DNA of 64,000 nt from Phytophthora sp. 'mugwort'. Taxonomy: Eukaryota > Oomycota > Peronosporomycetes > Peronosporales > Peronosporaceae. Below, one piece after another: positions 1-30,547 of this stretch; position 1 is the stretch's first letter; every line of letters starts with the position of its first letter. The position numbers and the translations under genes were made by a program. The stretch is taken from positions 4,333,001-4,397,000 of the forward strand of contig JAUCEF010000013.1 of the NCBI GenBank assembly GCA_033558025.1, in the 5' to 3' direction. Below the pieces are notes generated by a model that worked only from the letters and a program-made list of their open reading frames with translations, made no database searches and had not been told where the DNA came from.

Positions 1-6
1 ATATCC

Positions 7-79
7 GGGGATGTAGCTCAAATGGTAGAGCGCTCGCTTAGCATGCGAGAGGTACAGGGATCGATACCCTGCTTCTCCA
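7..79 (+). tRNA. tRNA-Ala(AGC), unit 1
   Basis: A 73-base cloverleaf: acceptor 7-13 pairs with 72-78, D arm GCTC/GAGC, anticodon stem CTCGC/GCGAG around loop TTAGCAT (anticodon AGC), T stem CAGGG/CCCTG, discriminator A79. The G3-U70 pair that marks alanine tRNAs is present. Position 6 faces 67 as T-T, an unpaired step in an otherwise good acceptor stem. The B box (GGATCGATACC) departs from consensus at one central base. No intron. The 3' CCA is not encoded beyond the discriminator. Confidence 0.96.
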
Positions 80-80
80 G

Positions 81-152
81 GCGTGTGTAGTATAGTGGTC
101 AGTACCTCACCTTGTGGCGGTGAAATCCCTGGTTCGAATCCGGGCACGCGCA
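81..152 (+). tRNA. tRNA-His(GTG), unit 1
   Basis: A 72-base cloverleaf: acceptor GCGTGTG/CACGCGC (one G-T pair), anticodon stem TCACC/GGTGA around TTGTGGC (anticodon GTG), T stem CCTGG/CCGGG, discriminator A152. The B box GGTTCGAATCC is perfect. It starts one base after tRNA-Ala; that base, G80, sits at the -1 position that tRNA-His needs for charging. Spacer markers A-G-C-A-T. Confidence 0.97.
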
Positions 153-186
153 CTCTTATGCTCATTATGCTGCCAGTATCTCTTCG

Positions 187-190
187 TTTT
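187..190 (+). terminator. Candidate Pol III terminator (T4), unit 1
   Basis: First run of four T after the tRNA pair, 35 bases beyond the tRNA-His 3' end. The bases directly after tRNA-His (CTCTTATG) contain no T4 run, so a transcript would carry a trailer of about 35 bases. The T4 recurs in all units; in units 29, 30, 35, 37 and 40 the base after it is G instead of A. Inferred from the known Pol III signal only. Confidence 0.5.
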
Positions 191-785
191 AGCCGCTGCG
201 CTTTCTCTCAGACCTGCATGCTGCTCCCACCGGGACTCACGATCTACTGCAACCATGTCGCGCCGTTACTTGACTGATGCATTGCCGCCACCAACGATCC
301 CTATTATCGCCATGTTTTTTACTGTCGGCCGGCCACCACACCGATGCTCTATTCATTTCCTGTCATGGCAAACTAGTATCGCTACAAGAGGTCCACTGGC
401 GTCTGATGTCGCTGGGCGAAGGCCAAAGCGTGTTGAACAGCATTCGCCATGATCGCCAGATTAGTCGGTGTAGCGGTTATTGTAGCCGACTCGAATTGGC
501 TGTCTGGCGTATATCGAGGGACGTGGTAGGCTTCCTATTGGGCGCAGCAGCACGTACACGAGTCGTGTATGCGACACTAGACTGTGCACGTAGCTGGAAA
601 GCGTGAAATAGTTGAGTCGTTTCTGGAGCCGTCTGATGGCTCGGATGCGACTTTTGATGCGTGAATTGTACGGAAGGGTCGAGCGACGTATGGATGAAGA
701 GTGTGGCGTGCTTATGGGCTGTGGCGATGCGTGGTGCTCGCATAATTTGTGTTTTATTTTCTGTGTGGGTATGCACATAATATCC

Positions 786-858
786 GGGGATGTAGCTCAA
801 ATGGTAGAGCGCTCGCTTAGCATGCGAGAGGTACAGGGATCGATACCCTGCTTCTCCA
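786..858 (+). tRNA. tRNA-Ala(AGC), unit 2
   Basis: No difference seen from the unit-1 copy. Confidence 0.95.
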
Positions 859-859
859 G

Positions 860-931
860 GCGTGTGTAGTATAGTGGTCAGTACCTCACCTTGTGGCGGT
901 GAAATCCCTGGTTCGAATCCGGGCACGCGCA
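860..931 (+). tRNA. tRNA-His(GTG), unit 2
   Basis: Same as unit 1. Spacer markers G-A-T-A-C with GCTC at site f. Confidence 0.96.
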
Positions 932-1564
932 CTCTTATGCTCATTATGCTGCCAGTATCTCTTCGTTTTAGCCGCTGCGCTTTCTCTCAGACCTGCATGC
1001 TGCTCCCACCGGGACTCACGATCTACTGCAACCATGTCGCGCCGTTACTTGACTGATGCATTGCCGCCACCAACGATCCCTATTATCGCCATGTTTTTTA
1101 CTGTCGGCCGGCCACCACACCGATGCTCTATTCATTTCCTGTCATGGCAAACTGGTATCGCTACAAGAGGTCCACTGGCGTCTGATGTCGCTGGGCGAAG
1201 GCCAAAGCGTGTTAAACAGCATTCGCCATGATCGCCAGATTAGTCGGTGTAGCGGTTATTGTAGCCGACTCGAATTGGCTGTCTGGCGTATATCGAGGGA
1301 CGTGGTAGGCTTCCTATTGGGCGCAGCAGCACGTATACGAGTCGTGTATGCGACACTAGACTGTGCACGTAGCTGGAAAGCGTGAAATAGTTGAGTCGTT
1401 TCTGGAGCCGTCTGATGGCTCGGATGCGACTTTTGATGCGTGAATTGTACGGAAGGGTCGAGCGACGTACGGATGAAGAGTGTGGCGTGCTTATGGGCTG
1501 TGGCGATGCGTGGTGCTCGCATAATTTGTGTTTTATTTTCTGTGTGGGTATGCTCATAATATCC

Positions 1565-1637
1565 GGGGATGTAGCTCAAATGGTAGAGCGCTCGCTTAGC
1601 ATGCGAGAGGTACAGGGATCGATACCCTGCTTCTCCA
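1565..1637 (+). tRNA. tRNA-Ala(AGC), unit 3
   Basis: Same as the unit-1 copy. Confidence 0.95.
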
Positions 1638-1638
1638 G

Positions 1639-1710
1639 GCGTGTGTAGTATAGTGGTCAGTACCTCACCTTGTGGCGGTGAAATCCCTGGTTCGAATCCG
1701 GGCACGCGCA
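1639..1710 (+). tRNA. tRNA-His(GTG), unit 3
   Basis: Same as unit 1. Spacer markers A-G-C-A-C; the spacer ends at a 48-base deletion that reaches into the next tRNA-Ala. Confidence 0.96.
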
Positions 1711-2337
1711 CTCTTATGCTCATTATGCTGCCAGTATCTCTTCGTTTTAGCCGCTGCGCTTTCTCTCAGACCTGCATGCTGCTCCCACCGGGACTCACGA
1801 TCTACTGCAACCATGTCGCGCCGTTACTTGACTGATGCATTGCCGCCACCAACGATCCCTATTATCGCCATGTTTTTTACTGTCGGCCGGCCACCACACC
1901 GATGCTCTATTCATTTCCTGTCATGGCAAACTAGTATCGCTACAAGAGGTCCACTGGCGTCTGATGTCGCTGGGCGAAGGCCAAAGCGTGTTGAACAGCA
2001 TTCGCCATGATCGCCAGATTAGTCGGTGTAGCGGTTATTGTAGCCGACTCGAATTGGCTGTCTGGCGTATATCGAGGGACGTGGTAGGCTTCCTATTGGG
2101 CGCAGCAGCACGTACACGAGTCGTGTATGCGACACTAGACTGTGCACGTAGCTGGAAAGCGTGAAATAGTTGAGTCGTTTCTGGAGCCGTCTGATGGCTC
2201 GGATGCGACTTTTGATGCGTGAATTGTACGGAAGGGTCGAGCGACGTACGGATGAAGAGTGTGGCGTGCTTATGGGCTGTGGCGATGCGTGGTGCTCGCA
2301 TAATTTGTGTTTTATTTTCTGTGTGGGTATGCACATA

Positions 2338-2368
2338 GAGGTACAGGGATCGATACCCTGCTTCTCCA
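2338..2368 (+). pseudogene. Truncated tRNA-Ala, unit 4
   Basis: Only the last 31 bases remain (end of the anticodon stem, variable loop, T arm, 3' acceptor strand). A 48-base deletion removed the 5' acceptor strand, D arm, A box and anticodon. The B box survives. It cannot fold as a tRNA. Confidence 0.93.
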
Positions 2369-2369
2369 G

Positions 2370-3147: not shown

Positions 3148-3148
3148 G

Positions 3149-10231: not shown

Positions 10232-10864
10232 CTCTTATGCTCATTATGCTGCCAGTATCTCTTCGTTTTAGCCGCTGCGCTTTCTCTCAGACCTGCATGC
10301 TGCTCCCACCGGGACTCACGATCTACTGCAACCATGCCGCGCCGTTACTTGACTGATGCATTGCCGCCACCAACGATCCCTATTATCGCCATGTTTTTTA
10401 CTGTCGGCCGGCCACCACACCGATGCTCTATTCATTTCCTGTCATGGCAAACTGGTATCGCTACAAGAGGTCCACTGGCGTCTGATGTCGCTGGGCGAAG
10501 GCCAAAGCGTGTTAAACAGCATTCGCCATGATCGCCAGATTAGTCGGTGTAGCGGTTATTGTAGCCGACTCGAATTGGCTGTCTGGCGTATATCGAGGGA
10601 CGTGGTAGGCTTCCTATTGGGCGCAGCAGCACGTACACGAGTCGTGTATGCGACACTAGACTGTGCACGTAGCTGGAAAGCGTGAAATAGTTGAGTCGTT
10701 TCTGGAGCCGTCTGATGGCTCGGATGCGACTTTTGATGCGTGAATTGTACGGAAGGGTCGCGCGACGTACGGATGAAGAGTGTGGCGTGCTTATGGGCTG
10801 TGGCGATGCGTGGTGCTCGCATAATTTGTGTTTTATTTTCTGTGTGGGTATGCACATAATATCC

Positions 10865-10937
10865 GGGGATGTAGCTCAAATGGTAGAGCGCTCGCTTAGC
10901 ATGCGAGAGGTACAGGGATCGATACCCTGCTTCTCCA
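10865..10937 (+). tRNA. tRNA-Ala(AGC), unit 15
   Basis: Same as the unit-1 copy. Confidence 0.95.
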
Positions 10938-10938
10938 G

Positions 10939-11010
10939 GCGTGTGTAGTATAGTGGTCAGTACCTCACCTTGTGGCGGTGAAATCCCTGGTTCGAATCCG
11001 GGCACGCGCA
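10939..11010 (+). tRNA. tRNA-His(GTG), unit 15
   Basis: Same as unit 1. Spacer G-A-C-C-C; the 48-base deletion follows. Confidence 0.96.
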
Positions 11011-11637
11011 CTCTTATGCTCATTATGCTGCCAGTATCTCTTCGTTTTAGCCGCTGCGCTTTCTCTCAGACCTGCATGCTGCTCCCACCGGGACTCACGA
11101 TCTACTGCAACCATGTCGCGCCGTTACTTGACTGATGCATTGCCGCCACCAACGATCCCTATTATCGCCATGTTTTTTACTGTCGGCCGGCCACCACACC
11201 GATGCTCTATTCATTTCCTGTCATGGCAAACTGGTATCGCTACAAGAGGTCCACTGGCGTCTGATGTCGCTGGGCGAAGGCCAAAGCGTGTTAAACAGCA
11301 TTCGCCATGATCGCCAGATTAGTCGGTGTAGCGGTTATTGTAGCCGACTCGAATTGGCTGTCTGGCGTATATCGAGGGACGTGGTAGGCTTCCTATTGGG
11401 CGCAGCAGCACGTACACGAGTCGTGTATGCGACACTAGACTGTGCACGTAGCTGGAAAGCGTGAAATAGTTGAGTCGTTTCTGGAGCCGTCTGATGGCTC
11501 GGATGCGACTTTTGATGCGTGAATTGTACGGAAGGGTCGCGCGACGTACGGATGAAGAGTGTGGCGTGCTTATGGGCTGTGGCGATGCGTGGTGCTCGCA
11601 TAATTTGTGTTTTATTTTCTGTGTGGGTATGCACATA

Positions 11638-11668
11638 GAGGTACAGGGATCGATACCCTGCTTCTCCA
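11638..11668 (+). pseudogene. Truncated tRNA-Ala, unit 16
   Basis: The last 31 bases only, with the same breakpoints as unit 4. Confidence 0.93.
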
Positions 11669-11669
11669 G

Positions 11670-11741
11670 GCGTGTGTAGTATAGTGGTCAGTACCTCACC
11701 TTGTGGCGGTGAAATCCCTGGTTCGAATCCGGGCACGCGCA
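11670..11741 (+). tRNA. tRNA-His(GTG), unit 16
   Basis: Intact. Spacer G-A-C-C-C with an A-to-G change (TCTGGTGTC), also found in units 18, 23 and 25. Confidence 0.96.
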
Positions 11742-12374
11742 CTCTTATGCTCATTATGCTGCCAGTATCTCTTCGTTTTAGCCGCTGCGCTTTCTCTCAG
11801 ACCTGCATGCTGCTCCCACCGGGACTCACGATCTACTGCAACCATGTCGCGCCGTTACTTGACTGATGCATTGCCGCCACCAACGATCCCTATTATCGCC
11901 ATGTTTTTTACTGTCGGCCGGCCACCACACCGATGCTCTATTCATTTCCTGTCATGGCAAACTGGTATCGCTACAAGAGGTCCACTGGCGTCTGGTGTCG
12001 CTGGGCGAAGGCCAAAGCGTGTTAAACAGCATTCGCCATGATCGCCAGATTAGTCGGTGTAGCGGTTATTGTAGCCGACTCGAATTGGCTGTCTGGCGTA
12101 TATCGAGGGACGTGGTAGGCTTCCTATTGGGCGCAGCAGCACGTACACGAGTCGTGTATGCGACACTAGACTGTGCACGTAGCTGGAAAGCGTGAAATAG
12201 TTGAGTCGTTTCTGGAGCCGTCTGATGGCTCGGATGCGACTTTTGATGCGTGAATTGTACGGAAGGGTCGCGCGACGTACGGATGAAGAGTGTGGCGTGC
12301 TTATGGGCTGTGGCGATGCGTGGTGCTCGCATAATTTGTGTTTTATTTTCTGTGTGGGTATGCACATAATATCC

Positions 12375-12447
12375 GGGGATGTAGCTCAAATGGTAGAGCG
12401 CTCGCTTAGCATGCGAGAGGTACAGGGATCGATACCCTGCTTCTCCA
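12375..12447 (+). tRNA. tRNA-Ala(AGC), unit 17
   Basis: Same as the unit-1 copy. Confidence 0.95.
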
Positions 12448-12448
12448 G

Positions 12449-12520
12449 GCGTGTGTAGTATAGTGGTCAGTACCTCACCTTGTGGCGGTGAAATCCCTGG
12501 TTCGAATCCGGGCACGCGCA
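12449..12520 (+). tRNA. tRNA-His(GTG), unit 17
   Basis: Same as unit 1. Spacer G-A-C-C-C. Confidence 0.96.
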
Positions 12521-13153
12521 CTCTTATGCTCATTATGCTGCCAGTATCTCTTCGTTTTAGCCGCTGCGCTTTCTCTCAGACCTGCATGCTGCTCCCACCG
12601 GGACTCACGATCTACTGCAACCATGTCGCGCCGTTACTTGACTGATGCATTGCCGCCACCAACGATCCCTATTATCGCCATGTTTTTTACTGTCGGCCGG
12701 CCACCACACCGATGCTCTATTCATTTCCTGTCATGGCAAACTGGTATCGCTACAAGAGGTCCACTGGCGTCTGATGTCGCTGGGCGAAGGCCAAAGCGTG
12801 TTAAACAGCATTCGCCATGATCGCCAGATTAGTCGGTGTAGCGGTTATTGTAGCCGACTCGAATTGGCTGTCTGGCGTATATCGAGGGACGTGGTAGGCT
12901 TCCTATTGGGCGCAGCAGCACGTACACGAGTCGTGTATGCGACACTAGACTGTGCACGTAGCTGGAAAGCGTGAAATAGTTGAGTCGTTTCTGGAGCCGT
13001 CTGATGGCTCGGATGCGACTTTTGATGCGTGAATTGTACGGAAGGGTCGCGCGACGTACGGATGAAGAGTGTGGCGTGCTTATGGGCTGTGGCGATGCGT
13101 GGTGCTCGCATAATTTGTGTTTTATTTTCTGTGTGGGTATGCACATAATATCC

Positions 13154-13226
13154 GGGGATGTAGCTCAAATGGTAGAGCGCTCGCTTAGCATGCGAGAGGT
13201 ACAGGGATCGATACCCTGCTTCTCCA
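13154..13226 (+). tRNA. tRNA-Ala(AGC), unit 18
   Basis: Same as the unit-1 copy. Confidence 0.95.
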
Positions 13227-13227
13227 G

Positions 13228-13299
13228 GCGTGTGTAGTATAGTGGTCAGTACCTCACCTTGTGGCGGTGAAATCCCTGGTTCGAATCCGGGCACGCGCA
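13228..13299 (+). tRNA. tRNA-His(GTG), unit 18
   Basis: Same as unit 1. Spacer with the TCTGGTGTC change. Confidence 0.96.
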
Positions 13300-13932
13300 C
13301 TCTTATGCTCATTATGCTGCCAGTATCTCTTCGTTTTAGCCGCTGCGCTTTCTCTCAGACCTGCATGCTGCTCCCACCGGGACTCACGATCTACTGCAAC
13401 CATGTCGCGCCGTTACTTGACTGATGCATTGCCGCCACCAACGATCCCTATTATCGCCATGTTTTTTACTGTCGGCCGGCCACCACACCGATGCTCTATT
13501 CATTTCCTGTCATGGCAAACTGGTATCGCTACAAGAGGTCCACTGGCGTCTGGTGTCGCTGGGCGAAGGCCAAAGCGTGTTAAACAGCATTCGCCATGAT
13601 CGCCAGATTAGTCGGTGTAGCGGTTATTGTAGCCGACTCGAATTGGCTGTCTGGCGTATATCGAGGGACGTGGTAGGCTTCCTATTGGGCGCAGCAGCAC
13701 GTACACGAGTCGTGTATGCGACACTAGACTGTGCACGTAGCTGGAAAGCGTGAAATAGTTGAGTCGTTTCTGGAGCCGTCTGATGGCTCGGATGCGACTT
13801 TTGATGCGTGAATTGTACGGAAGGGTCGCGCGACGTACGGATGAAGAGTGTGGCGTGCTTATGGGCTGTGGCGATGCGTGGTGCTCGCATAATTTGTGTT
13901 TTATTTTCTGTGTGGGTATGCACATAATATCC

Positions 13933-14005
13933 GGGGATGTAGCTCAAATGGTAGAGCGCTCGCTTAGCATGCGAGAGGTACAGGGATCGATACCCTGCTT
14001 CTCCA
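13933..14005 (+). tRNA. tRNA-Ala(AGC), unit 19
   Basis: Same as the unit-1 copy. Confidence 0.95.
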
Positions 14006-14006
14006 G

Positions 14007-14078
14007 GCGTGTGTAGTATAGTGGTCAGTACCTCACCTTGTGGCGGTGAAATCCCTGGTTCGAATCCGGGCACGCGCA
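14007..14078 (+). tRNA. tRNA-His(GTG), unit 19
   Basis: Same as unit 1. Spacer G-A-C-C-C. Confidence 0.96.
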
Positions 14079-14711
14079 CTCTTATGCTCATTATGCTGCC
14101 AGTATCTCTTCGTTTTAGCCGCTGCGCTTTCTCTCAGACCTGCATGCTGCTCCCACCGGGACTCACGATCTACTGCAACCATGTCGCGCCGTTACTTGAC
14201 TGATGCATTGCCGCCACCAACGATCCCTATTATCGCCATGTTTTTTACTGTCGGCCGGCCACCACACCGATGCTCTATTCATTTCCTGTCATGGCAAACT
14301 GGTATCGCTACAAGAGGTCCACTGGCGTCTGATGTCGCTGGGCGAAGGCCAAAGCGTGTTAAACAGCATTCGCCATGATCGCCAGATTAGTCGGTGTAGC
14401 GGTTATTGTAGCCGACTCGAATTGGCTGTCTGGCGTATATCGAGGGACGTGGTAGGCTTCCTATTGGGCGCAGCAGCACGTACACGAGTCGTGTATGCGA
14501 CACTAGACTGTGCACGTAGCTGGAAAGCGTGAAATAGTTGAGTCGTTTCTGGAGCCGTCTGATGGCTCGGATGCGACTTTTGATGCGTGAATTGTACGGA
14601 AGGGTCGCGCGACGTACGGATGAAGAGTGTGGCGTGCTTATGGGCTGTGGCGATGCGTGGTGCTCGCATAATTTGTGTTTTATTTTCTGTGTGGGTATGC
14701 ACATAATATCC

Positions 14712-14784
14712 GGGGATGTAGCTCAAATGGTAGAGCGCTCGCTTAGCATGCGAGAGGTACAGGGATCGATACCCTGCTTCTCCA
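14712..14784 (+). tRNA. tRNA-Ala(AGC), unit 20
   Basis: Same as the unit-1 copy. Confidence 0.95.
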
Positions 14785-14785
14785 G

Positions 14786-14857
14786 GCGTGTGTAGTATAG
14801 TGGTCAGTACCTCACCTTGTGGCGGTGAAATCCCTGGTTCGAATCCGGGCACGCGCA
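14786..14857 (+). tRNA. tRNA-His(GTG), unit 20
   Basis: Same as unit 1. Spacer G-A-C-C-C. Confidence 0.96.
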
Positions 14858-15490
14858 CTCTTATGCTCATTATGCTGCCAGTATCTCTTCGTTTTAGCCG
14901 CTGCGCTTTCTCTCAGACCTGCATGCTGCTCCCACCGGGACTCACGATCTACTGCAACCATGTCGCGCCGTTACTTGACTGATGCATTGCCGCCACCAAC
15001 GATCCCTATTATCGCCATGTTTTTTACTGTCGGCCGGCCACCACACCGATGCTCTATTCATTTCCTGTCATGGCAAACTGGTATCGCTACAAGAGGTCCA
15101 CTGGCGTCTGATGTCGCTGGGCGAAGGCCAAAGCGTGTTAAACAGCATTCGCCATGATCGCCAGATTAGTCGGTGTAGCGGTTATTGTAGCCGACTCGAA
15201 TTGGCTGTCTGGCGTATATCGAGGGACGTGGTAGGCTTCCTATTGGGCGCAGCAGCACGTACACGAGTCGTGTATGCGACACTAGACTGTGCACGTAGCT
15301 GGAAAGCGTGAAATAGTTGAGTCGTTTCTGGAGCCGTCTGATGGCTCGGATGCGACTTTTGATGCGTGAATTGTACGGAAGGGTCGCGCGACGTACGGAT
15401 GAAGAGTGTGGCGTGCTTATGGGCTGTGGCGATGCGTGGTGCTCGCATAATTTGTGTTTTATTTTCTGTGTGGGTATGCACATAATATCC

Positions 15491-15563
15491 GGGGATGTAG
15501 CTCAAATGGTAGAGCGCTCGCTTAGCATGCGAGAGGTACAGGGATCGATACCCTGCTTCTCCA
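15491..15563 (+). tRNA. tRNA-Ala(AGC), unit 21
   Basis: Same as the unit-1 copy. Confidence 0.95.
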
Positions 15564-15564
15564 G

Positions 15565-15636
15565 GCGTGTGTAGTATAGTGGTCAGTACCTCACCTTGTG
15601 GCGGTGAAATCCCTGGTTCGAATCCGGGCACGCGCA
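15565..15636 (+). tRNA. tRNA-His(GTG), unit 21
   Basis: Same as unit 1. Spacer G-A-C-C-C. Confidence 0.96.
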
Positions 15637-16269
15637 CTCTTATGCTCATTATGCTGCCAGTATCTCTTCGTTTTAGCCGCTGCGCTTTCTCTCAGACCTG
15701 CATGCTGCTCCCACCGGGACTCACGATCTACTGCAACCATGTCGCGCCGTTACTTGACTGATGCATTGCCGCCACCAACGATCCCTATTATCGCCATGTT
15801 TTTTACTGTCGGCCGGCCACCACACCGATGCTCTATTCATTTCCTGTCATGGCAAACTGGTATCGCTACAAGAGGTCCACTGGCGTCTGATGTCGCTGGG
15901 CGAAGGCCAAAGCGTGTTAAACAGCATTCGCCATGATCGCCAGATTAGTCGGTGTAGCGGTTATTGTAGCCGACTCGAATTGGCTGTCTGGCGTATATCG
16001 AGGGACGTGGTAGGCTTCCTATTGGGCGCAGCAGCACGTACACGAGTCGTGTATGCGACACTAGACTGTGCACGTAGCTGGAAAGCGTGAAATAGTTGAG
16101 TCGTTTCTGGAGCCGTCTGATGGCTCGGATGCGACTTTTGATGCGTGAATTGTACGGAAGGGTCGCGCGACGTACGGATGAAGAGTGTGGCGTGCTTATG
16201 GGCTGTGGCGATGCGTGGTGCTCGCATAATTTGTGTTTTATTTTCTGTGTGGGTATGCACATAATATCC

Positions 16270-16342
16270 GGGGATGTAGCTCAAATGGTAGAGCGCTCGC
16301 TTAGCATGCGAGAGGTACAGGGATCGATACCCTGCTTCTCCA
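16270..16342 (+). tRNA. tRNA-Ala(AGC), unit 22
   Basis: Same as the unit-1 copy. Confidence 0.95.
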
Positions 16343-16343
16343 G

Positions 16344-16415
16344 GCGTGTGTAGTATAGTGGTCAGTACCTCACCTTGTGGCGGTGAAATCCCTGGTTCGA
16401 ATCCGGGCACGCGCA
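16344..16415 (+). tRNA. tRNA-His(GTG), unit 22
   Basis: Same as unit 1. Spacer G-A-C-C-C; the 48-base deletion follows. Confidence 0.96.
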
Positions 16416-17042
16416 CTCTTATGCTCATTATGCTGCCAGTATCTCTTCGTTTTAGCCGCTGCGCTTTCTCTCAGACCTGCATGCTGCTCCCACCGGGACT
16501 CACGATCTACTGCAACCATGTCGCGCCGTTACTTGACTGATGCATTGCCGCCACCAACGATCCCTATTATCGCCATGTTTTTTACTGTCGGCCGGCCACC
16601 ACACCGATGCTCTATTCATTTCCTGTCATGGCAAACTGGTATCGCTACAAGAGGTCCACTGGCGTCTGATGTCGCTGGGCGAAGGCCAAAGCGTGTTAAA
16701 CAGCATTCGCCATGATCGCCAGATTAGTCGGTGTAGCGGTTATTGTAGCCGACTCGAATTGGCTGTCTGGCGTATATCGAGGGACGTGGTAGGCTTCCTA
16801 TTGGGCGCAGCAGCACGTACACGAGTCGTGTATGCGACACTAGACTGTGCACGTAGCTGGAAAGCGTGAAATAGTTGAGTCGTTTCTGGAGCCGTCTGAT
16901 GGCTCGGATGCGACTTTTGATGCGTGAATTGTACGGAAGGGTCGCGCGACGTACGGATGAAGAGTGTGGCGTGCTTATGGGCTGTGGCGATGCGTGGTGC
17001 TCGCATAATTTGTGTTTTATTTTCTGTGTGGGTATGCACATA

Positions 17043-17073
17043 GAGGTACAGGGATCGATACCCTGCTTCTCCA
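17043..17073 (+). pseudogene. Truncated tRNA-Ala, unit 23
   Basis: The last 31 bases only, with the same breakpoints as units 4, 16 and 39. Confidence 0.93.
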
Positions 17074-17074
17074 G

Positions 17075-17146
17075 GCGTGTGTAGTATAGTGGTCAGTACC
17101 TCACCTTGTGGCGGTGAAATCCCTGGTTCGAATCCGGGCACGCGCA
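17075..17146 (+). tRNA. tRNA-His(GTG), unit 23
   Basis: Intact. Spacer with the TCTGGTGTC change, as in unit 16. Confidence 0.96.
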
Positions 17147-17779
17147 CTCTTATGCTCATTATGCTGCCAGTATCTCTTCGTTTTAGCCGCTGCGCTTTCT
17201 CTCAGACCTGCATGCTGCTCCCACCGGGACTCACGATCTACTGCAACCATGTCGCGCCGTTACTTGACTGATGCATTGCCGCCACCAACGATCCCTATTA
17301 TCGCCATGTTTTTTACTGTCGGCCGGCCACCACACCGATGCTCTATTCATTTCCTGTCATGGCAAACTGGTATCGCTACAAGAGGTCCACTGGCGTCTGG
17401 TGTCGCTGGGCGAAGGCCAAAGCGTGTTAAACAGCATTCGCCATGATCGCCAGATTAGTCGGTGTAGCGGTTATTGTAGCCGACTCGAATTGGCTGTCTG
17501 GCGTATATCGAGGGACGTGGTAGGCTTCCTATTGGGCGCAGCAGCACGTACACGAGTCGTGTATGCGACACTAGACTGTGCACGTAGCTGGAAAGCGTGA
17601 AATAGTTGAGTCGTTTCTGGAGCCGTCTGATGGCTCGGATGCGACTTTTGATGCGTGAATTGTACGGAAGGGTCGCGCGACGTACGGATGAAGAGTGTGG
17701 CGTGCTTATGGGCTGTGGCGATGCGTGGTGCTCGCATAATTTGTGTTTTATTTTCTGTGTGGGTATGCACATAATATCC

Positions 17780-17852
17780 GGGGATGTAGCTCAAATGGTA
17801 GAGCGCTCGCTTAGCATGCGAGAGGTACAGGGATCGATACCCTGCTTCTCCA
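17780..17852 (+). tRNA. tRNA-Ala(AGC), unit 24
   Basis: Same as the unit-1 copy. Confidence 0.95.
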
Positions 17853-17853
17853 G

Positions 17854-17925
17854 GCGTGTGTAGTATAGTGGTCAGTACCTCACCTTGTGGCGGTGAAATC
17901 CCTGGTTCGAATCCGGGCACGCGCA
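17854..17925 (+). tRNA. tRNA-His(GTG), unit 24
   Basis: Same as unit 1. Spacer G-A-C-C-C. Confidence 0.96.
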
Positions 17926-18558
17926 CTCTTATGCTCATTATGCTGCCAGTATCTCTTCGTTTTAGCCGCTGCGCTTTCTCTCAGACCTGCATGCTGCTCC
18001 CACCGGGACTCACGATCTACTGCAACCATGTCGCGCCGTTACTTGACTGATGCATTGCCGCCACCAACGATCCCTATTATCGCCATGTTTTTTACTGTCG
18101 GCCGGCCACCACACCGATGCTCTATTCATTTCCTGTCATGGCAAACTGGTATCGCTACAAGAGGTCCACTGGCGTCTGATGTCGCTGGGCGAAGGCCAAA
18201 GCGTGTTAAACAGCATTCGCCATGATCGCCAGATTAGTCGGTGTAGCGGTTATTGTAGCCGACTCGAATTGGCTGTCTGGCGTATATCGAGGGACGTGGT
18301 AGGCTTCCTATTGGGCGCAGCAGCACGTACACGAGTCGTGTATGCGACACTAGACTGTGCACGTAGCTGGAAAGCGTGAAATAGTTGAGTCGTTTCTGGA
18401 GCCGTCTGATGGCTCGGATGCGACTTTTGATGCGTGAATTGTACGGAAGGGTCGCGCGACGTACGGATGAAGAGTGTGGCGTGCTTATGGGCTGTGGCGA
18501 TGCGTGGTGCTCGCATAATTTGTGTTTTATTTTCTGTGTGGGTATGCACATAATATCC

Positions 18559-18631
18559 GGGGATGTAGCTCAAATGGTAGAGCGCTCGCTTAGCATGCGA
18601 GAGGTACAGGGATCGATACCCTGCTTCTCCA
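18559..18631 (+). tRNA. tRNA-Ala(AGC), unit 25
   Basis: Same as the unit-1 copy. Confidence 0.95.
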
Positions 18632-18632
18632 G

Positions 18633-18704
18633 GCGTGTGTAGTATAGTGGTCAGTACCTCACCTTGTGGCGGTGAAATCCCTGGTTCGAATCCGGGCACG
18701 CGCA
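18633..18704 (+). tRNA. tRNA-His(GTG), unit 25
   Basis: Same as unit 1. Spacer with the TCTGGTGTC change, as in unit 18. Confidence 0.96.
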
Positions 18705-19337
18705 CTCTTATGCTCATTATGCTGCCAGTATCTCTTCGTTTTAGCCGCTGCGCTTTCTCTCAGACCTGCATGCTGCTCCCACCGGGACTCACGATCTACT
18801 GCAACCATGTCGCGCCGTTACTTGACTGATGCATTGCCGCCACCAACGATCCCTATTATCGCCATGTTTTTTACTGTCGGCCGGCCACCACACCGATGCT
18901 CTATTCATTTCCTGTCATGGCAAACTGGTATCGCTACAAGAGGTCCACTGGCGTCTGGTGTCGCTGGGCGAAGGCCAAAGCGTGTTAAACAGCATTCGCC
19001 ATGATCGCCAGATTAGTCGGTGTAGCGGTTATTGTAGCCGACTCGAATTGGCTGTCTGGCGTATATCGAGGGACGTGGTAGGCTTCCTATTGGGCGCAGC
19101 AGCACGTACACGAGTCGTGTATGCGACACTAGACTGTGCACGTAGCTGGAAAGCGTGAAATAGTTGAGTCGTTTCTGGAGCCGTCTGATGGCTCGGATGC
19201 GACTTTTGATGCGTGAATTGTACGGAAGGGTCGCGCGACGTACGGATGAAGAGTGTGGCGTGCTTATGGGCTGTGGCGATGCGTGGTGCTCGCATAATTT
19301 GTGTTTTATTTTCTGTGTGGGTATGCACATAATATCC

Positions 19338-19410
19338 GGGGATGTAGCTCAAATGGTAGAGCGCTCGCTTAGCATGCGAGAGGTACAGGGATCGATACCC
19401 TGCTTCTCCA
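19338..19410 (+). tRNA. tRNA-Ala(AGC), unit 26
   Basis: Same as the unit-1 copy. Confidence 0.95.
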
Positions 19411-19411
19411 G

Positions 19412-19483
19412 GCGTGTGTAGTATAGTGGTCAGTACCTCACCTTGTGGCGGTGAAATCCCTGGTTCGAATCCGGGCACGCGCA
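19412..19483 (+). tRNA. tRNA-His(GTG), unit 26
   Basis: Same as unit 1. Spacer G-A-C-C-C. Confidence 0.96.
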
Positions 19484-20116
19484 CTCTTATGCTCATTATG
19501 CTGCCAGTATCTCTTCGTTTTAGCCGCTGCGCTTTCTCTCAGACCTGCATGCTGCTCCCACCGGGACTCACGATCTACTGCAACCATGTCGCGCCGTTAC
19601 TTGACTGATGCATTGCCGCCACCAACGATCCCTATTATCGCCATGTTTTTTACTGTCGGCCGGCCACCACACCGATGCTCTATTCATTTCCTGTCATGGC
19701 AAACTGGTATCGCTACAAGAGGTCCACTGGCGTCTGATGTCGCTGGGCGAAGGCCAAAGCGTGTTAAACAGCATTCGCCATGATCGCCAGATTAGTCGGT
19801 GTAGCGGTTATTGTAGCCGACTCGAATTGGCTGTCTGGCGTATATCGAGGGACGTGGTAGGCTTCCTATTGGGCGCAGCAGCACGTACACGAGTCGTGTA
19901 TGCGACACTAGACTGTGCACGTAGCTGGAAAGCGTGAAATAGTTGAGTCGTTTCTGGAGCCGTCTGATGGCTCGGATGCGACTTTTGATGCGTGAATTGT
20001 ACGGAAGGGTCGCGCGACGTACGGATGAAGAGTGTGGCGTGCTTATGGGCTGTGGCGATGCGTGGTGCTCGCATAATTTGTGTTTTATTTTCTGTGTGGG
20101 TATGCACATAATATCC

Positions 20117-20189
20117 GGGGATGTAGCTCAAATGGTAGAGCGCTCGCTTAGCATGCGAGAGGTACAGGGATCGATACCCTGCTTCTCCA
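20117..20189 (+). tRNA. tRNA-Ala(AGC), unit 27
   Basis: Same as the unit-1 copy. Confidence 0.95.
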
Positions 20190-20190
20190 G

Positions 20191-20262
20191 GCGTGTGTAG
20201 TATAGTGGTCAGTACCTCACCTTGTGGCGGTGAAATCCCTGGTTCGAATCCGGGCACGCGCA
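20191..20262 (+). tRNA. tRNA-His(GTG), unit 27
   Basis: Same as unit 1. Spacer G-A-C-C-C. Confidence 0.96.
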
Positions 20263-20895
20263 CTCTTATGCTCATTATGCTGCCAGTATCTCTTCGTTTT
20301 AGCCGCTGCGCTTTCTCTCAGACCTGCATGCTGCTCCCACCGGGACTCACGATCTACTGCAACCATGTCGCGCCGTTACTTGACTGATGCATTGCCGCCA
20401 CCAACGATCCCTATTATCGCCATGTTTTTTACTGTCGGCCGGCCACCACACCGATGCTCTATTCATTTCCTGTCATGGCAAACTGGTATCGCTACAAGAG
20501 GTCCACTGGCGTCTGATGTCGCTGGGCGAAGGCCAAAGCGTGTTAAACAGCATTCGCCATGATCGCCAGATTAGTCGGTGTAGCGGTTATTGTAGCCGAC
20601 TCGAATTGGCTGTCTGGCGTATATCGAGGGACGTGGTAGGCTTCCTATTGGGCGCAGCAGCACGTACACGAGTCGTGTATGCGACACTAGACTGTGCACG
20701 TAGCTGGAAAGCGTGAAATAGTTGAGTCGTTTCTGGAGCCGTCTGATGGCTCGGATGCGACTTTTGATGCGTGAATTGTACGGAAGGGTCGCGCGACGTA
20801 CGGATGAAGAGTGTGGCGTGCTTATGGGCTGTGGCGATGCGTGGTGCTCGCATAATTTGTGTTTTATTTTCTGTGTGGGTATGCACATAATATCC

Positions 20896-20968
20896 GGGGA
20901 TGTAGCTCAAATGGTAGAGCGCTCGCTTAGCATGCGAGAGGTACAGGGATCGATACCCTGCTTCTCCA
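20896..20968 (+). tRNA. tRNA-Ala(AGC), unit 28
   Basis: Same as the unit-1 copy. Confidence 0.95.
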
Positions 20969-20969
20969 G

Positions 20970-21041
20970 GCGTGTGTAGTATAGTGGTCAGTACCTCACC
21001 TTGTGGCGGTGAAATCCCTGGTTCGAATCCGGGCACGCGCA
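20970..21041 (+). tRNA. tRNA-His(GTG), unit 28
   Basis: Same as unit 1. Spacer G-A-C-C-C. Confidence 0.96.
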
Positions 21042-21674
21042 CTCTTATGCTCATTATGCTGCCAGTATCTCTTCGTTTTAGCCGCTGCGCTTTCTCTCAG
21101 ACCTGCATGCTGCTCCCACCGGGACTCACGATCTACTGCAACCATGTCGCGCCGTTACTTGACTGATGCATTGCCGCCACCAACGATCCCTATTATCGCC
21201 ATGTTTTTTACTGTCGGCCGGCCACCACACCGATGCTCTATTCATTTCCTGTCATGGCAAACTGGTATCGCTACAAGAGGTCCACTGGCGTCTGATGTCG
21301 CTGGGCGAAGGCCAAAGCGTGTTAAACAGCATTCGCCATGATCGCCAGATTAGTCGGTGTAGCGGTTATTGTAGCCGACTCGAATTGGCTGTCTGGCGTA
21401 TATCGAGGGACGTGGTAGGCTTCCTATTGGGCGCAGCAGCACGTACACGAGTCGTGTATGCGACACTAGACTGTGCACGTAGCTGGAAAGCGTGAAATAG
21501 TTGAGTCGTTTCTGGAGCCGTCTGATGGCTCGGATGCGACTTTTGATGCGTGAATTGTACGGAAGGGTCGCGCGACGTACGGATGAAGAGTGTGGCGTGC
21601 TTATGGGCTGTGGCGATGCGTGGTGCTCGCATAATTTGTGTTTTATTTTCTGTGTGGGTATGCACATAATATCC

Positions 21675-21747
21675 GGGGATGTAGCTCAAATGGTAGAGCG
21701 CTCGCTTAGCATGCGAGAGGTACAGGGATCGATACCCTGCTTCTCCA
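21675..21747 (+). tRNA. tRNA-Ala(AGC), unit 29
   Basis: Same as the unit-1 copy. Confidence 0.95.
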
Positions 21748-21748
21748 G

Positions 21749-21820
21749 GCGTGTGTAGTATAGTGGTCAGTACCTCACCTTGTGGCGGTGAAATCCCTGG
21801 TTCGAATCCGGGCACGCGCA
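21749..21820 (+). tRNA. tRNA-His(GTG), unit 29
   Basis: Same as unit 1. Spacer markers G-G-C-C-C plus TTTTGG, CACCAATG and CATGTACACG changes shared with unit 30. Confidence 0.96.
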
Positions 21821-22453
21821 CTCTTATGCTCATTATGCTGCCAGTATCTCTTCGTTTTGGCCGCTGCGCTTTCTCTCAGACCTGCATGCTGCTCCCACCG
21901 GGACTCACGATCTACTGCAACCATGTCGCGCCGTTACTTGACTGATGCATTGCCGCCACCAACGATCCCTATTATCGCCATGTTTTTTACTGTCGGCCGG
22001 CCACCACACCAATGCTCTATTCATTTCCTGTCATGGCAAACTGGTATCGCTACAAGAGGTCCACTGGCGTCTGATGTCGCTGGGCGAAGGCCAAAGCGTG
22101 TTGAACAGCATTCGCCATGATCGCCAGATTAGTCGGTGTAGCGGTTATTGTAGCCGACTCGAATTGGCTGTCTGGCGTATATCGAGGGACGTGGTAGGCT
22201 TCCTATTGGGCGCAGCAGCATGTACACGAGTCGTGTATGCGACACTAGACTGTGCACGTAGCTGGAAAGCGTGAAATAGTTGAGTCGTTTCTGGAGCCGT
22301 CTGATGGCTCGGATGCGACTTTTGATGCGTGAATTGTACGGAAGGGTCGCGCGACGTACGGATGAAGAGTGTGGCGTGCTTATGGGCTGTGGCGATGCGT
22401 GGTGCTCGCATAATTTGTGTTTTATTTTCTGTGTGGGTATGCACATAATATCC

Positions 22454-24011: not shown

Positions 24012-24084
24012 GGGGATGTAGCTCAAATGGTAGAGCGCTCACTTAGCATGCGAGAGGTACAGGGATCGATACCCTGCTTCTCCA
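24012..24084 (+). tRNA. tRNA-Ala(AGC) variant, unit 32
   Basis: G-to-A in the anticodon stem (CTCAC instead of CTCGC) leaves an A-C mismatch one pair from the loop. Anticodon AGC is unchanged. Confidence 0.88.
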
Positions 24085-24085
24085 G

Positions 24086-24157
24086 GCGTGTGTAGTATAG
24101 TGGTCAGTACCTCACCTTGTGGCGGTGAAATCCCTGGTTCGAATCCGGGCACGCGCA
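24086..24157 (+). tRNA. tRNA-His(GTG), unit 32
   Basis: Same as unit 1. Its spacer lost one GGCC and gained 8 bases (net +4, a 783-base unit); C-to-T at CATGATC; G at site b. Confidence 0.96.
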
Positions 24158-24794
24158 CTCTTATGCTCATTATGCTGCCAGTATCTCTTCGTTTTAGCCG
24201 CTGCGCTTTCTCTCAGACCTGCATGCTGCTCCCACCGGGACTCATGATCTACTGCAACCATGTCGCGCCGTTACTTGACTGATGCATTGCCGCCACCAAC
24301 GATCCCTATTATCGCCATGTTTTTTACTGTCGGCCACCACACCGATGCTCTATTCATTTTCCGGATGCCTGTCGTGGCAAACTGGTATCGCTACAAGAGG
24401 TCCACTGGCGTCTGATGTCGCTGGGCGAAGGCCAAAGCGTGTTGAACAGCATTCGCCATGATCGCCAGATTAGTCGGTGTAGCGGTTATTGTAGCCGACT
24501 CGAATTGGCTGTCTGGCGTATATCGAGGGACGTGGTAGGCTTCCTATTGGGCGCAGCAGCACGTACACGAGTCGTGTATGCGACACTAGACTGTGCACGT
24601 AGCTGGAAAGCGTGAAATAGTTGAGTCGTTTCTGGAGCCGTCTGATGGCTCGGATGCGACTTTTGATGCGTGAATTGTACGGAAGGGTCGCGCGACGTAC
24701 GGATGAAGAGTGTGGCGTGCTTATGGGCTGTGGCGATGCGTGGTGCTCGCATAATTTGTGTTTTATTTTCTGTGTGGGTATGCACATAATATCC

Positions 24795-24867
24795 GGGGAT
24801 GTAGCTCAAATGGTAGAGCGCTCACTTAGCATGCGAGAGGTACAGGGATCGATACCCTGCTTCTCCA
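24795..24867 (+). tRNA. tRNA-Ala(AGC) variant, unit 33
   Basis: Carries the same anticodon-stem G-to-A change as unit 32. Confidence 0.88.
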
Positions 24868-27991: not shown

Positions 27992-27992
27992 G

Positions 27993-28064
27993 GCGTGTGT
28001 AGTATAGTGGTCAGTACCTCACCTTGTGGCGGTGAAATCCCTGGTTCGAATCCGGGCACGCGCA
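27993..28064 (+). tRNA. tRNA-His(GTG), unit 37
   Basis: Same as unit 1. Spacer G-A-C-A-C with TTTTGG, CATGATC and AGATTG. Confidence 0.96.
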
Positions 28065-28697
28065 CTCTTATGCTCATTATGCTGCCAGTATCTCTTCGTT
28101 TTGGCCGCTGCGCTTTCTCTCAGACCTGCATGCTGCTCCCACCGGGACTCATGATCTACTGCAACCATGTCGCGCCGTTACTTGACTGATGCATTGCCGC
28201 CACCAACGATCCCTATTATCGCCATGTTTTTTACTGTCGGCCGGCCACCACACCGATGCTCTATTCATTTCCTGTCATGGCAAACTGGTATCGCTACAAG
28301 AGGTCCACTGGCGTCTGATGTCGCTGGGCGAAGGCCAAAGCGTGTTAAACAGCATTCGCCATGATCGCCAGATTAGTCGGTGTAGCGGTTATTGTAGCCG
28401 ACTCGAATTGGCTGTCTGGCGTATATCGAGGGACGTGGTAGGCTTCCTATTGGGCGCAGCAGCACGTACACGAGTCGTGTATGCGACACTAGATTGTGCA
28501 CGTAGCTGGAAAGCGTGAAATAGTTGAGTCGTTTCTGGAGCCGTCTGATGGCTCGGATGCGACTTTTGATGCGTGAATTGTACGGAAGGGTCGAGCGACG
28601 TACGGATGAAGAGTGTGGCGTGCTTATGGGCTGTGGCGATGCGTGGTGCTCGCATAATTTGTGTTTTATTTTCTGTGTGGGTATGCACATAATATCC

Positions 28698-28770
28698 GGG
28701 GATGTAGCTCAAATGGTAGAGCGCTCGCTTAGCATGCGAGAGGTACAGGGATCGATACCCTGCTTCTCCA
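28698..28770 (+). tRNA. tRNA-Ala(AGC), unit 38
   Basis: Same as the unit-1 copy. Confidence 0.95.
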
Positions 28771-28771
28771 G

Positions 28772-28843
28772 GCGTGTGTAGTATAGTGGTCAGTACCTCA
28801 CCTTGTGGCGGTGAAATCCCTGGTTCGAATCCGGGCACGCGCA
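28772..28843 (+). tRNA. tRNA-His(GTG), unit 38
   Basis: Same as unit 1. Spacer G-A-C-C-C with CATGATC; the 48-base deletion follows. Confidence 0.96.
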
Positions 28844-29470
28844 CTCTTATGCTCATTATGCTGCCAGTATCTCTTCGTTTTAGCCGCTGCGCTTTCTCTC
28901 AGACCTGCATGCTGCTCCCACCGGGACTCATGATCTACTGCAACCATGTCGCGCCGTTACTTGACTGATGCATTGCCGCCACCAACGATCCCTATTATCG
29001 CCATGTTTTTTACTGTCGGCCGGCCACCACACCGATGCTCTATTCATTTCCTGTCATGGCAAACTGGTATCGCTACAAGAGGTCCACTGGCGTCTGATGT
29101 CGCTGGGCGAAGGCCAAAGCGTGTTAAACAGCATTCGCCATGATCGCCAGATTAGTCGGTGTAGCGGTTATTGTAGCCGACTCGAATTGGCTGTCTGGCG
29201 TATATCGAGGGACGTGGTAGGCTTCCTATTGGGCGCAGCAGCACGTACACGAGTCGTGTATGCGACACTAGACTGTGCACGTAGCTGGAAAGCGTGAAAT
29301 AGTTGAGTCGTTTCTGGAGCCGTCTGATGGCTCGGATGCGACTTTTGATGCGTGAATTGTACGGAAGGGTCGCGCGACGTACGGATGAAGAGTGTGGCGT
29401 GCTTATGGGCTGTGGCGATGCGTGGTGCTCGCATAATTTGTGTTTTATTTTCTGTGTGGGTATGCACATA

Positions 29471-29501
29471 GAGGTACAGGGATCGATACCCTGCTTCTCC
29501 A
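29471..29501 (+). pseudogene. Truncated tRNA-Ala, unit 39
   Basis: The last 31 bases only, with the same breakpoints as the other three truncated copies. Confidence 0.93.
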
Positions 29502-29502
29502 G

Positions 29503-29574
29503 GCGTGTGTAGTATAGTGGTCAGTACCTCACCTTGTGGCGGTGAAATCCCTGGTTCGAATCCGGGCACGCGCA
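29503..29574 (+). tRNA. tRNA-His(GTG), unit 39
   Basis: Intact. Spacer G-A-C-A-C. Confidence 0.96.
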
Positions 29575-30207
29575 CTCTTATGCTCATTATGCTGCCAGTA
29601 TCTCTTCGTTTTAGCCGCTGCGCTTTCTCTCAGACCTGCATGCTGCTCCCACCGGGACTCACGATCTACTGCAACCATGTCGCGCCGTTACTTGACTGAT
29701 GCATTGCCGCCACCAACGATCCCTATTATCGCCATGTTTTTTACTGTCGGCCGGCCACCACACCGATGCTCTATTCATTTCCTGTCATGGCAAACTGGTA
29801 TCGCTACAAGAGGTCCACTGGCGTCTGATGTCGCTGGGCGAAGGCCAAAGCGTGTTAAACAGCATTCGCCATGATCGCCAGATTAGTCGGTGTAGCGGTT
29901 ATTGTAGCCGACTCGAATTGGCTGTCTGGCGTATATCGAGGGACGTGGTAGGCTTCCTATTGGGCGCAGCAGCACGTACACGAGTCGTGTATGCGACACT
30001 AGACTGTGCACGTAGCTGGAAAGCGTGAAATAGTTGAGTCGTTTCTGGAGCCGTCTGATGGCTCGGATGCGACTTTTGATGCGTGAATTGTACGGAAGGG
30101 TCGAGCGACGTACGGATGAAGAGTGTGGCGTGCTTATGGGCTGTGGCGATGCGTGGTGCTCGCATAATTTGTGTTTTATTTTCTGTGTGGGTATGCACAT
30201 AATATCC

Positions 30208-30280
30208 GGGGATGTAGCTCAAATGGTAGAGCGCTCGCTTAGCATGCGAGAGGTACAGGGATCGATACCCTGCTTCTCCA
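30208..30280 (+). tRNA. tRNA-Ala(AGC), unit 40
   Basis: Same as the unit-1 copy; last tRNA-Ala of the array. Confidence 0.95.
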
Positions 30281-30281
30281 G

Positions 30282-30353
30282 GCGTGTGTAGTATAGTGGT
30301 CAGTACCTCACCTTGTGGCGGTGAAATCCCTGGTTCGAATCCGGGCACGCGCA
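30282..30353 (+). tRNA. tRNA-His(GTG), unit 40
   Basis: Last gene of the array. Its spacer carries TTTTGG, has one T fewer in the ATGTTTTT run, lacks one GGCC and stops at 30547, about 195 bases past the tRNA. Confidence 0.96.
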
Positions 30354-30547
30354 CTCTTATGCTCATTATGCTGCCAGTATCTCTTCGTTTTGGCCGCTGC
30401 GCTTTCTCTCAGACCTGCATGCTGCTCCCACCGGGACTCACGATCTACTGCAACCATGTCGCGCCGTTACTTGACTGATGCATTGCCGCCACCAACGATC
30501 CCTATTATCGCCATGTTTTTACTGTCGGCCACCACACCGATGCTCTA

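What the first reader, a model, noticed from the sequence alone, without database searches (positions are those of the whole stretch)
1..30547. Giant dicistronic tRNA-Ala/tRNA-His tandem array
Forty units in 30.5 kb, and the array continues upstream. Sequence shows 40 tRNA-His and 36 full tRNA-Ala genes in near-identical 779-base units. Large tandem tRNA arrays are well known in Entamoeba; such an array pairing Ala and His in an oomycete-like genome would be notable. It resembles rDNA in organisation and may serve as a structural or copy-number-variable locus.
Basis: partly seen in the sequence, partly recalled or inferred. Interest (0 to 1): 0.88.

Follow-up and report, generated by a model that had tools for sequence, protein, structure and literature searches.

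The report
Tandem alanine–histidine tRNA gene array
A plant-pathogen water mould of the genus Phytophthora carries about 59 near-identical head-to-tail copies of a paired alanine/histidine transfer-RNA gene, an arrangement already reported for its relatives; it seems to be the genome's only nuclear source of histidine tRNA, and a built-in extra G at the junction suggests an unusual way of finishing that tRNA.

Summary
The window holds 40 tRNA-His(GUG) and 36 complete tRNA-Ala(AGC) genes in 779-base head-to-tail units, and the array continues upstream: 59 units over about 45.7 kb of contig C13. The genome is a Phytophthora. Such arrays are not new in oomycetes: Matson et al. 2022 described many in P. 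infestans, including two- and three-gene units. I therefore file it as a new member of a known kind.

Added here: (1) every canonical nuclear tRNA-His found in the 86 Mb genome lies in this array, and a spacer probe matches nowhere else (58 of 58). This argues against the 'SINE-like' label given to such arrays in Peronospora. (2) Four units carry one identical 48-nt deletion removing the 5' half of tRNA-Ala, and a 7-unit block is duplicated exactly (6,116-bp match), as expected from unequal exchange. (3) The single base between the genes is a G at position -1 of tRNA-His in 59 of 59 units. Three searches found no Thg1, the enzyme that normally adds this G. A precursor with encoded G-1, where one cut makes both ends, is an attractive but unproven idea.

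Copy number rests on the assembly; no reads were available.

The parts
1..30547 (+). Window part of the tRNA-Ala/tRNA-His tandem array (units 20-59 of 59; the whole array begins 15,143 bases before window position 1)
7..785 (+). One complete 779-base unit (unit 20)
7..79 (+). tRNA-Ala (anticodon AGC), 73 nt, with G3:U70 acceptor pair and a U6:U67 mismatch
   Evidence: pairs read by eye from the sequence
80..80 (+). Single spacer base G = position -1 of tRNA-His; G in 59 of 59 units, the four deletion units included
81..152 (+). tRNA-His (anticodon GUG), 72 nt, discriminator A73; ARAGORN gives 81-153, Rfam gives 72 nt for the complete copies it was given
187..190 (+). First TTTT of the unit after the Ala start, beginning 35 nt past tRNA-His: probable Pol III terminator (inferred); there is no T4 between the two genes
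2338..2368 (+). Ala remnant (nt 43-73 of 73) in deletion unit 23; 48 nt lost (6 leader nt + Ala 1-42; placement ambiguous by one base)
11638..11668 (+). Ala remnant in deletion unit 35, same junction
17043..17073 (+). Ala remnant in deletion unit 42, same junction (inside the duplicated block)
29471..29501 (+). Ala remnant in deletion unit 58, same junction
10338..16453 (+). First copy of an exactly repeated 6,116-bp stretch; the second is 5,405 bp downstream (15743-21858)
24012..24867 (+). Units 51 and 52, whose Ala genes carry the only point variant seen in the tRNA genes of the array (G30 to A, anticodon stem)
30548..32855 (+). Right flank, unrelated to the unit, leading into a protein kinase gene

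Best explanation
A genuine tandem array of a two-gene RNA polymerase III unit. Each unit is read as one precursor holding tRNA-Ala(AGC) and tRNA-His(GUG) and cut into two tRNAs (inferred; no RNA data). The array expanded and is kept uniform by unequal exchange between units (inferred from the repeat pattern). It is the only nuclear source of canonical tRNA-His found in this genome, so it is most likely a working gene array and not a dispersed selfish repeat. It belongs to the already described oomycete tRNA arrays.
For: 40 His and 36 Ala genes in the window; 59 and 55 in the whole array. All 59 exact matches to a 31-nt 5' tRNA-His pattern genome-wide are here, + strand only. A degenerate D-arm/anticodon pattern with up to 3 mismatches gives 212 places, 100 listed in order of mismatches: 59 at zero, then 41 at 3, so none at 1 or 2 (that the order is by mismatches is read from this list and). 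An independent anticodon-loop/T-arm pattern gives 162 matches, 100 listed: 59 in the array, 37 one identical string on small contigs of mitochondrial type, and 4 other single sites, none of which ARAGORN or Rfam at E up to 1 calls a tRNA. No T4 between the genes and the first T4 35 nt after His favour one transcript. Neighbouring units are more alike than units in shuffled order (1.88 against 2.92 differences; 0 of 10000 permutations as low). Exact 7-unit block duplication. One identical deletion in four units. Rare variants pile up in units 48-58 (20 against 15 in the other 47; allowing for the block being chosen after seeing the data, 20 of 10000 permutations hold such a block). Precedent in P. 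infestans.
Against: No reads: the assembly could mis-state the copy number, and the exact 6.1-kb duplication is also what an assembly duplication would look like. Transcription and processing are not shown. The tRNA genes are not significantly poorer in variants than the spacer (1 variable site in 146 against 16 in 633, p = 0.22), so selection on them is not demonstrated from the array itself. Sixty-two of the 162 matches were not listed; from the listing order they should lie on contig C70 or later, and I did not see them. A strongly diverged or intron-bearing tRNA-His would escape all three patterns.
Confidence: 0.85

Rival explanations
1. SINE-like repetitive element: the array is a selfish tRNA-derived repeat, as proposed for tRNA clusters of Peronospora effusa.
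For: Same general shape (tRNA plus several hundred bases of spacer, near-identical copies) and the published proposal (PMC11540230 section 9). That paper too finds its repeats confined to one place each and thinks them unable to move (discussion passage).
Against: A 32-nt spacer probe with up to 3 mismatches matches 58 places, all in this array on one strand. The array holds every canonical nuclear tRNA-His found, so the cell should need it. Two different intact tRNAs per unit (36 of 40 units in the window). No R-x-L-R motif in the six frames of the one unit tested.
Confidence: 0.06
2. Assembly artefact: a short array inflated by repeated or misplaced long reads.
For: No reads were available; a 6,116-bp exact repeat exists.
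Against: Units differ by ordered point variants and indels that form a position-dependent pattern; both ends run into DNA unrelated to the unit and to each other; a second array with an unrelated spacer and a third exist in the same genome; in P. infestans, copy numbers of representative families agreed with read depth (and figure legend).
Confidence: 0.05
3. Structural or chromatin locus in which the tRNA genes matter as boundary or nuclear-organisation elements more than as tRNA sources.
For: Only a suggestion made for large oomycete tRNA arrays in the discussion of PMC9584435 (passage seen).
Against: Nothing tested here supports it; as the only tRNA-His source found, the array should at least supply tRNA.
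Confidence: 0.04

Closest known systems
Tandem tRNA arrays of Phytophthora infestans with dimeric/trimeric units (Matson et al. 2022, PMC9584435; outline, passages and section 9 read)
   Same: Oomycete; head-to-tail repeat units (513 and 850 nt in the examples given) with one to three tRNA genes; about two thirds of tRNA families on a single chromosome; growth by unequal crossing-over proposed
   Different: The Ala-His pair is not among the examples in the section read; that paper reports higher diversity in dimeric arrays, while this one is 99.6% uniform on average
SINE-like tRNA clusters of Peronospora effusa (PMC11540230; passages and section 9 read)
   Same: Tens to hundreds of near-identical tRNA-bearing repeats per cluster, each kind confined to one place
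   Different: Here two intact tRNAs per unit, no RXLR-type motif in the unit tested, and the array is the only tRNA-His source found
Entamoeba tRNA gene arrays (Tawari et al., PMC2652664; outline and abstract read)
   Same: Tandem units with several tRNA genes each
   Different: E. histolytica/E. dispar units carry short tandem repeats between genes; none found here (the abstract says other Entamoeba species lack the complex ones too)
Dimeric tRNA genes of S. pombe and S. cerevisiae (recalled; the S. pombe paper is in the reference list of PMC9584435)
   Same: Two tRNAs in one Pol III precursor
   Different: Those are few, with spacers of several bases (recalled); here one base, in an array of 59
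Caenorhabditis elegans tRNA-His with encoded, retained G-1 (PMC6471195, figure legend seen)
   Same: G at -1 encoded in the gene
   Different: Retention of G-1 is not shown here; the upstream neighbour is another tRNA with no other spacer

Membership tests
Oomycete multi-gene tRNA tandem arrays | Head-to-tail units with two or three tRNA genes | tested here: met
Oomycete multi-gene tRNA tandem arrays | tRNA family confined to one chromosome (reported for about two thirds of families) | tested here: met
   59 of 59 exact tRNA-His on C13; tRNA-Ala does not meet it (second array on C3)
Oomycete multi-gene tRNA tandem arrays | Higher sequence diversity in dimeric arrays, as reported for P. infestans | tested here: not met
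   mean pairwise identity 0.996, minimum 0.988, 58 units; a reported tendency, not a defining rule
Oomycete multi-gene tRNA tandem arrays | Copy number supported by read depth | not testable with these tools
   no reads held
Entamoeba-type arrays | Short tandem repeats between genes | tested here: not met
   no TRF row inside 1-30547 at score 50 or more, periods up to 500
Entamoeba-type arrays | Almost all tRNA genes of the genome in arrays | not tested
   genome-wide tRNA listing scored only 63 of 9329 candidates, on small mitochondrial-type contigs
SINE or SINE-like element | Dispersed copies of the body outside one locus | tested here: not met
   58 of 58 spacer-probe matches in the array; the P. 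effusa 'SINE-like' clusters lack dispersal as well
SINE or SINE-like element | Retrotransposition marks (target-site duplication, 3' tail) | not tested
   no dispersed copy to examine
Dimeric tRNA precursor | No Pol III terminator between the two genes | tested here: met
   first T4 begins 35 nt after tRNA-His
Dimeric tRNA precursor | Single co-transcript observed | not testable with these tools
   no RNA data
Encoded-G-1, Thg1-independent tRNA-His (C. elegans type) | G at -1 in every tRNA-His gene | tested here: met
   59 of 59; one homogenised lineage, so one evolutionary observation
Encoded-G-1, Thg1-independent tRNA-His (C. elegans type) | No Thg1 in the genome | tested here: inconclusive
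   no hit for PF04446, PF14413 or a Candida Thg1 at E up to 10. Controls: both families ring in 1 of 14 control genomes, all prokaryotes; in this genome the tool does find HisRS and PRORP. The tool says an empty answer to the protein query shows nothing without a positive genome; a gene split by introns or lying in a gap could be missed
Encoded-G-1, Thg1-independent tRNA-His (C. elegans type) | G-1 present on mature tRNA-His | not testable with these tools
   needs 5'-end sequencing

The most novel reading that the evidence does not exclude
This Phytophthora has dispensed with Thg1 and encodes the histidine-identity G-1 as the sole base between tRNA-Ala and tRNA-His. One cut directly after the discriminator base of tRNA-Ala (by tRNase Z, or by RNase P at the -2/-1 bond) then gives both a tRNA-Ala 3' end ready for CCA addition and a tRNA-His that starts with 5'-phosphate G-1. 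The dimer would itself be the device that sets tRNA-His identity.
Probability: 0.25. Interest if true: 0.7.

Novelty: new member of a known kind. Interest (0 to 1): 0.4.

Why it matters
It bears on an open disagreement over whether the very large oomycete tRNA clusters are working tRNA genes or SINE-like repeats: at least this one cannot be spared if it is the sole tRNA-His source. Its ordered unit variants make it a clean record of multi-unit unequal exchange. If the Thg1-free reading holds, it would be another way for a eukaryote to make histidine tRNA, testable by sequencing one RNA end.

Tried and rejected
Entamoeba-type array: rejected as membership because no short tandem repeats were found between the genes.

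SINE-like element: rejected because the spacer probe has no match outside the array and the array is the only tRNA-His source found. Lack of dispersal alone does not separate it from the P. effusa clusters, which are also confined to one place each.

Coding role for the 169-aa minus-strand frame repeated in most units: it runs through both tRNA genes, and no R-x-L-R motif occurs in the six frames of the one unit tested. Not pursued; protein-family searches were not run on it.

Selection on the tRNA genes from variant density: not significant (p = 0.22). An earlier run counted six misaligned columns (positions 774-779, in the four units that precede a deletion) as variants, giving p = 0.10 and neighbour differences of 2.72 against 3.71 (1 of 5000); one search gave identities of 0.995 and 0.985 with the same columns in. 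I dropped those columns and recomputed; the figures in this report are the recomputed ones.

Folding the 200-nt precursor as one RNA gave no useful structure (z = 0.73).

RNase P RNA (RF00009) was not found at E up to 1 (14 of 3629 candidates scored; 1 of 14 control genomes rang, below cut-off), while a PRORP domain was (E 8.5e-35). The RNA result is weak evidence. On the novel reading: Arabidopsis PRORP1 cut a model substrate with G-1 and G73 mainly between -1 and +1 (PMC4975455 passages), which would remove G-1; with G-1:C73, as in plant organelle and E. coli tRNA-His, PRORPs mostly keep it. G-1:A73, as here, was not in the passages seen.

Related Ala-G-His junctions elsewhere: exact pattern scans of genome contigs and viral contigs found none, as expected for collections without eukaryote genomes. 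Two papers by Rao and co-workers on eukaryotes without G-1 addition are not held. The one search naming Thg1, tRNAHis and oomycete together (54 papers with at least two of the terms, 25 listed) listed no paper with all three. Passages of PMC4272539 and PMC5177647 on Phytophthora tRNA fragments and of PMC9667082 had nothing on the Ala-His pair.
Full report
OBSERVATION. ARAGORN reports 78 tRNA genes in the window: 40 tRNA-His(gtg) and 36 tRNA-Ala(agc) between 7 and 30354, all on the + strand, and two more (Leu, Ile) at 42682-42830. Unit length is 779; in the whole array four units are 731, one 783, one 787. The window is C13:4,333,001-4,397,000 of an 86.26-Mb assembly of 154 contigs. Reading upstream, the array starts inside a unit at C13:4,317,858 and ends at 4,363,547: 59 His and 55 complete Ala genes. 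The two 8-kb flanks share no sequence at E up to 1e-3.

ORGANISM. The flanking 902-aa PPR protein is closest to Phytophthora proteins among 51 hits: 78% to P. pseudosyringae, 76% to P. sojae. So it is a Phytophthora and, at that distance, not P. sojae; the species was not determined.

ANATOMY. All 59 His genes are identical over 72 nt. Ala is identical in 53 of 55, with G30 to A in two (units 51 and 52). The Ala acceptor has G3:U70, the usual alanine signal (table of PMC9976931 seen), and a U6:U67 mismatch (read by eye). Between the Ala discriminator (79) and His G1 (81) lies one base, G (80), in 59 of 59 units. There is no run of four T until 35 nt after tRNA-His, so one Pol III transcript of roughly 190 nt is likely (inferred).

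EVOLUTION IN THE ARRAY. The 58 full units are 99.6% identical on average, with 17 variable sites. Adjacent units differ at 1.88 of these against 2.92 in shuffled order (0 of 10000 permutations as low). Units 34-40 and 41-47 are exact copies; the exact match is 6,116 bp at an offset of 5,405. Four units (23, 35, 42, 58) share one 48-nt deletion with the same junction, two of them through that duplication. Rare variants concentrate in units 48-58 (20 against 15 in the other 47); since I chose that block after seeing it, the fair figure is that 20 of 10000 permutations hold any such 11-unit block, and linked variants make even this generous. These are the marks expected of unequal exchange, with an edge less well homogenised. 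Matson et al. report variants grouped near an array edge too, for single-gene arrays. The deletion removes the start of tRNA-Ala, and with it that gene's internal A box (inferred from position), but leaves tRNA-His whole.

ONLY SOURCE OF tRNA-His FOUND. Exact 31-nt tRNA-His 5' pattern: 59, all here. A looser pattern with up to 3 mismatches: 159 + 53 matches, 100 listed; 59 perfect ones here and 41 at 3 mismatches in what reads as a tRNA-Asp array at C13:885,740-912,662. Anticodon-loop/T-arm pattern: 110 + 52 matches, 100 listed; 59 here, 37 an identical string on small contigs, 4 single sites on C1, C11, C12 and C18. None of the four is called a tRNA by ARAGORN or Rfam at E up to 1, though the C18 one looks by eye like a decayed tRNA. 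The small contigs are taken as mitochondrial from their tRNA content and a GC of 0.277 in the six pieces measured. The 62 matches not listed should lie on C70 or later. A strongly diverged or intron-bearing tRNA-His could still be missed. The spacer probe matches 58 places, all in the array (54 exact, 4 with one mismatch).

tRNA-Ala, by contrast, has a second array at C3:3,352,748 to at least 3,409,899, with 67 pattern copies (ARAGORN counts 74), spaced about 783 bases apart. Its 73-nt gene equals the window's in 61 of the 67, while one unit of each array compared shows no other match better than E 0.26.

HOW IT WORKS. Best supported: a dicistronic precursor cut into two tRNAs, in an array kept uniform by unequal exchange. 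Shown: sequence, order, uniformity, lack of a terminator between the genes. Inferred: co-transcription, processing, copy-number dynamics.

THE G AT -1. In most eukaryotes Thg1 adds G-1 after RNase P cutting; C. elegans encodes and keeps it; T. brucei and Acanthamoeba do without (PMC6471195 passages and figure legend). Here G is encoded at -1, and no Thg1 was found with PF04446, PF14413 or a Candida Thg1 at E up to 10. The two families ring in 1 of 14 control genomes, an archaeon. In this genome the same tool found HisRS (E 5e-40, one locus) and PRORP (E 8.5e-35, with a second domain at 5.8e-8 and a third below cut-off). A cut exactly after the Ala discriminator would finish both tRNAs at once. 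Limits: a G at one position in one homogenised array has a prior chance of about one in four; the searches can miss split genes, and the tool itself warns that an empty answer to the protein query shows nothing without a positive genome; no eukaryote with Thg1 was available as a control; plant PRORP1 cut a G-1:G73 substrate mainly after G-1, though G-1:C73 substrates mostly keep G-1. The alternative without Thg1 is a HisRS that needs no G-1; its sequence could not be fetched.

COMPARISON. Matson et al. 2022 (PMC9584435; outline, passages and section 9 read) report about 64% of P. [quoted passage not shown] The P. effusa pangenome paper (PMC11540230; passages and section 9 read) calls such clusters SINE-like. 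The present array favours the first view. Entamoeba arrays (PMC2652664, outline and abstract) are an analogy.

VERDICT. Real, well explained, new member of a known kind; the G-1 and Thg1 point is the part worth following.

Noticed in passing
window 42657-42890: tRNA-Leu(UAG), tRNA-Ile(GAU) and, by eye, a third tRNA-like stretch in AT-rich DNA; looks like mitochondrial DNA inserted in the nuclear genome. Only a 61-nt, 80% match to the fetched mitochondrial-type pieces was found.
   Followed up: partly
G000 C3:3352748-3409899 (loci L018-L023): Second tRNA-Ala(AGC) array, single gene per unit, about 783 bp, at least 67 copies; tRNA gene identical to the window's in 61 of 67, spacer unrelated. It may continue past the fetched end.
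   Followed up: partly
G000 C13:885740-912662: Another array with a 558-bp unit whose gene reads like tRNA-Asp(GUC); it may continue past the listed places.
   Followed up: no
G000, many small contigs from C15 on: Many small contigs share mitochondrial-type tRNA clusters; of 30 fetched pieces six were measured, all GC 0.277, so the contig count overstates nuclear fragmentation.
   Followed up: partly
window 33796-39166: Two adjacent long frames beside the array, one a PPR protein (902 aa) and one of 803 aa without a Pfam hit; the first has relatives across Phytophthora and downy mildews.
   Followed up: partly
G000 C6:3456699-3457169 and C12:681566-681766: Protein-only RNase P (PRORP) domains (E 8.5e-35 and 5.8e-8), while RNase P RNA (RF00009) was not found.
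   Followed up: no
window 477-986 and the same place in most other units, minus strand: A 169-aa frame runs antisense through both tRNA genes (153 aa in the deletion units); no sign that it codes.
   Followed up: partly
G000 C18:572076-572171 (L065): A tRNA-like stretch with a His-type anticodon loop that neither ARAGORN nor Rfam accepts; perhaps a decayed tRNA.
   Followed up: partly
window 41918-41989: A perfect 36-copy GA repeat.
   Followed up: no
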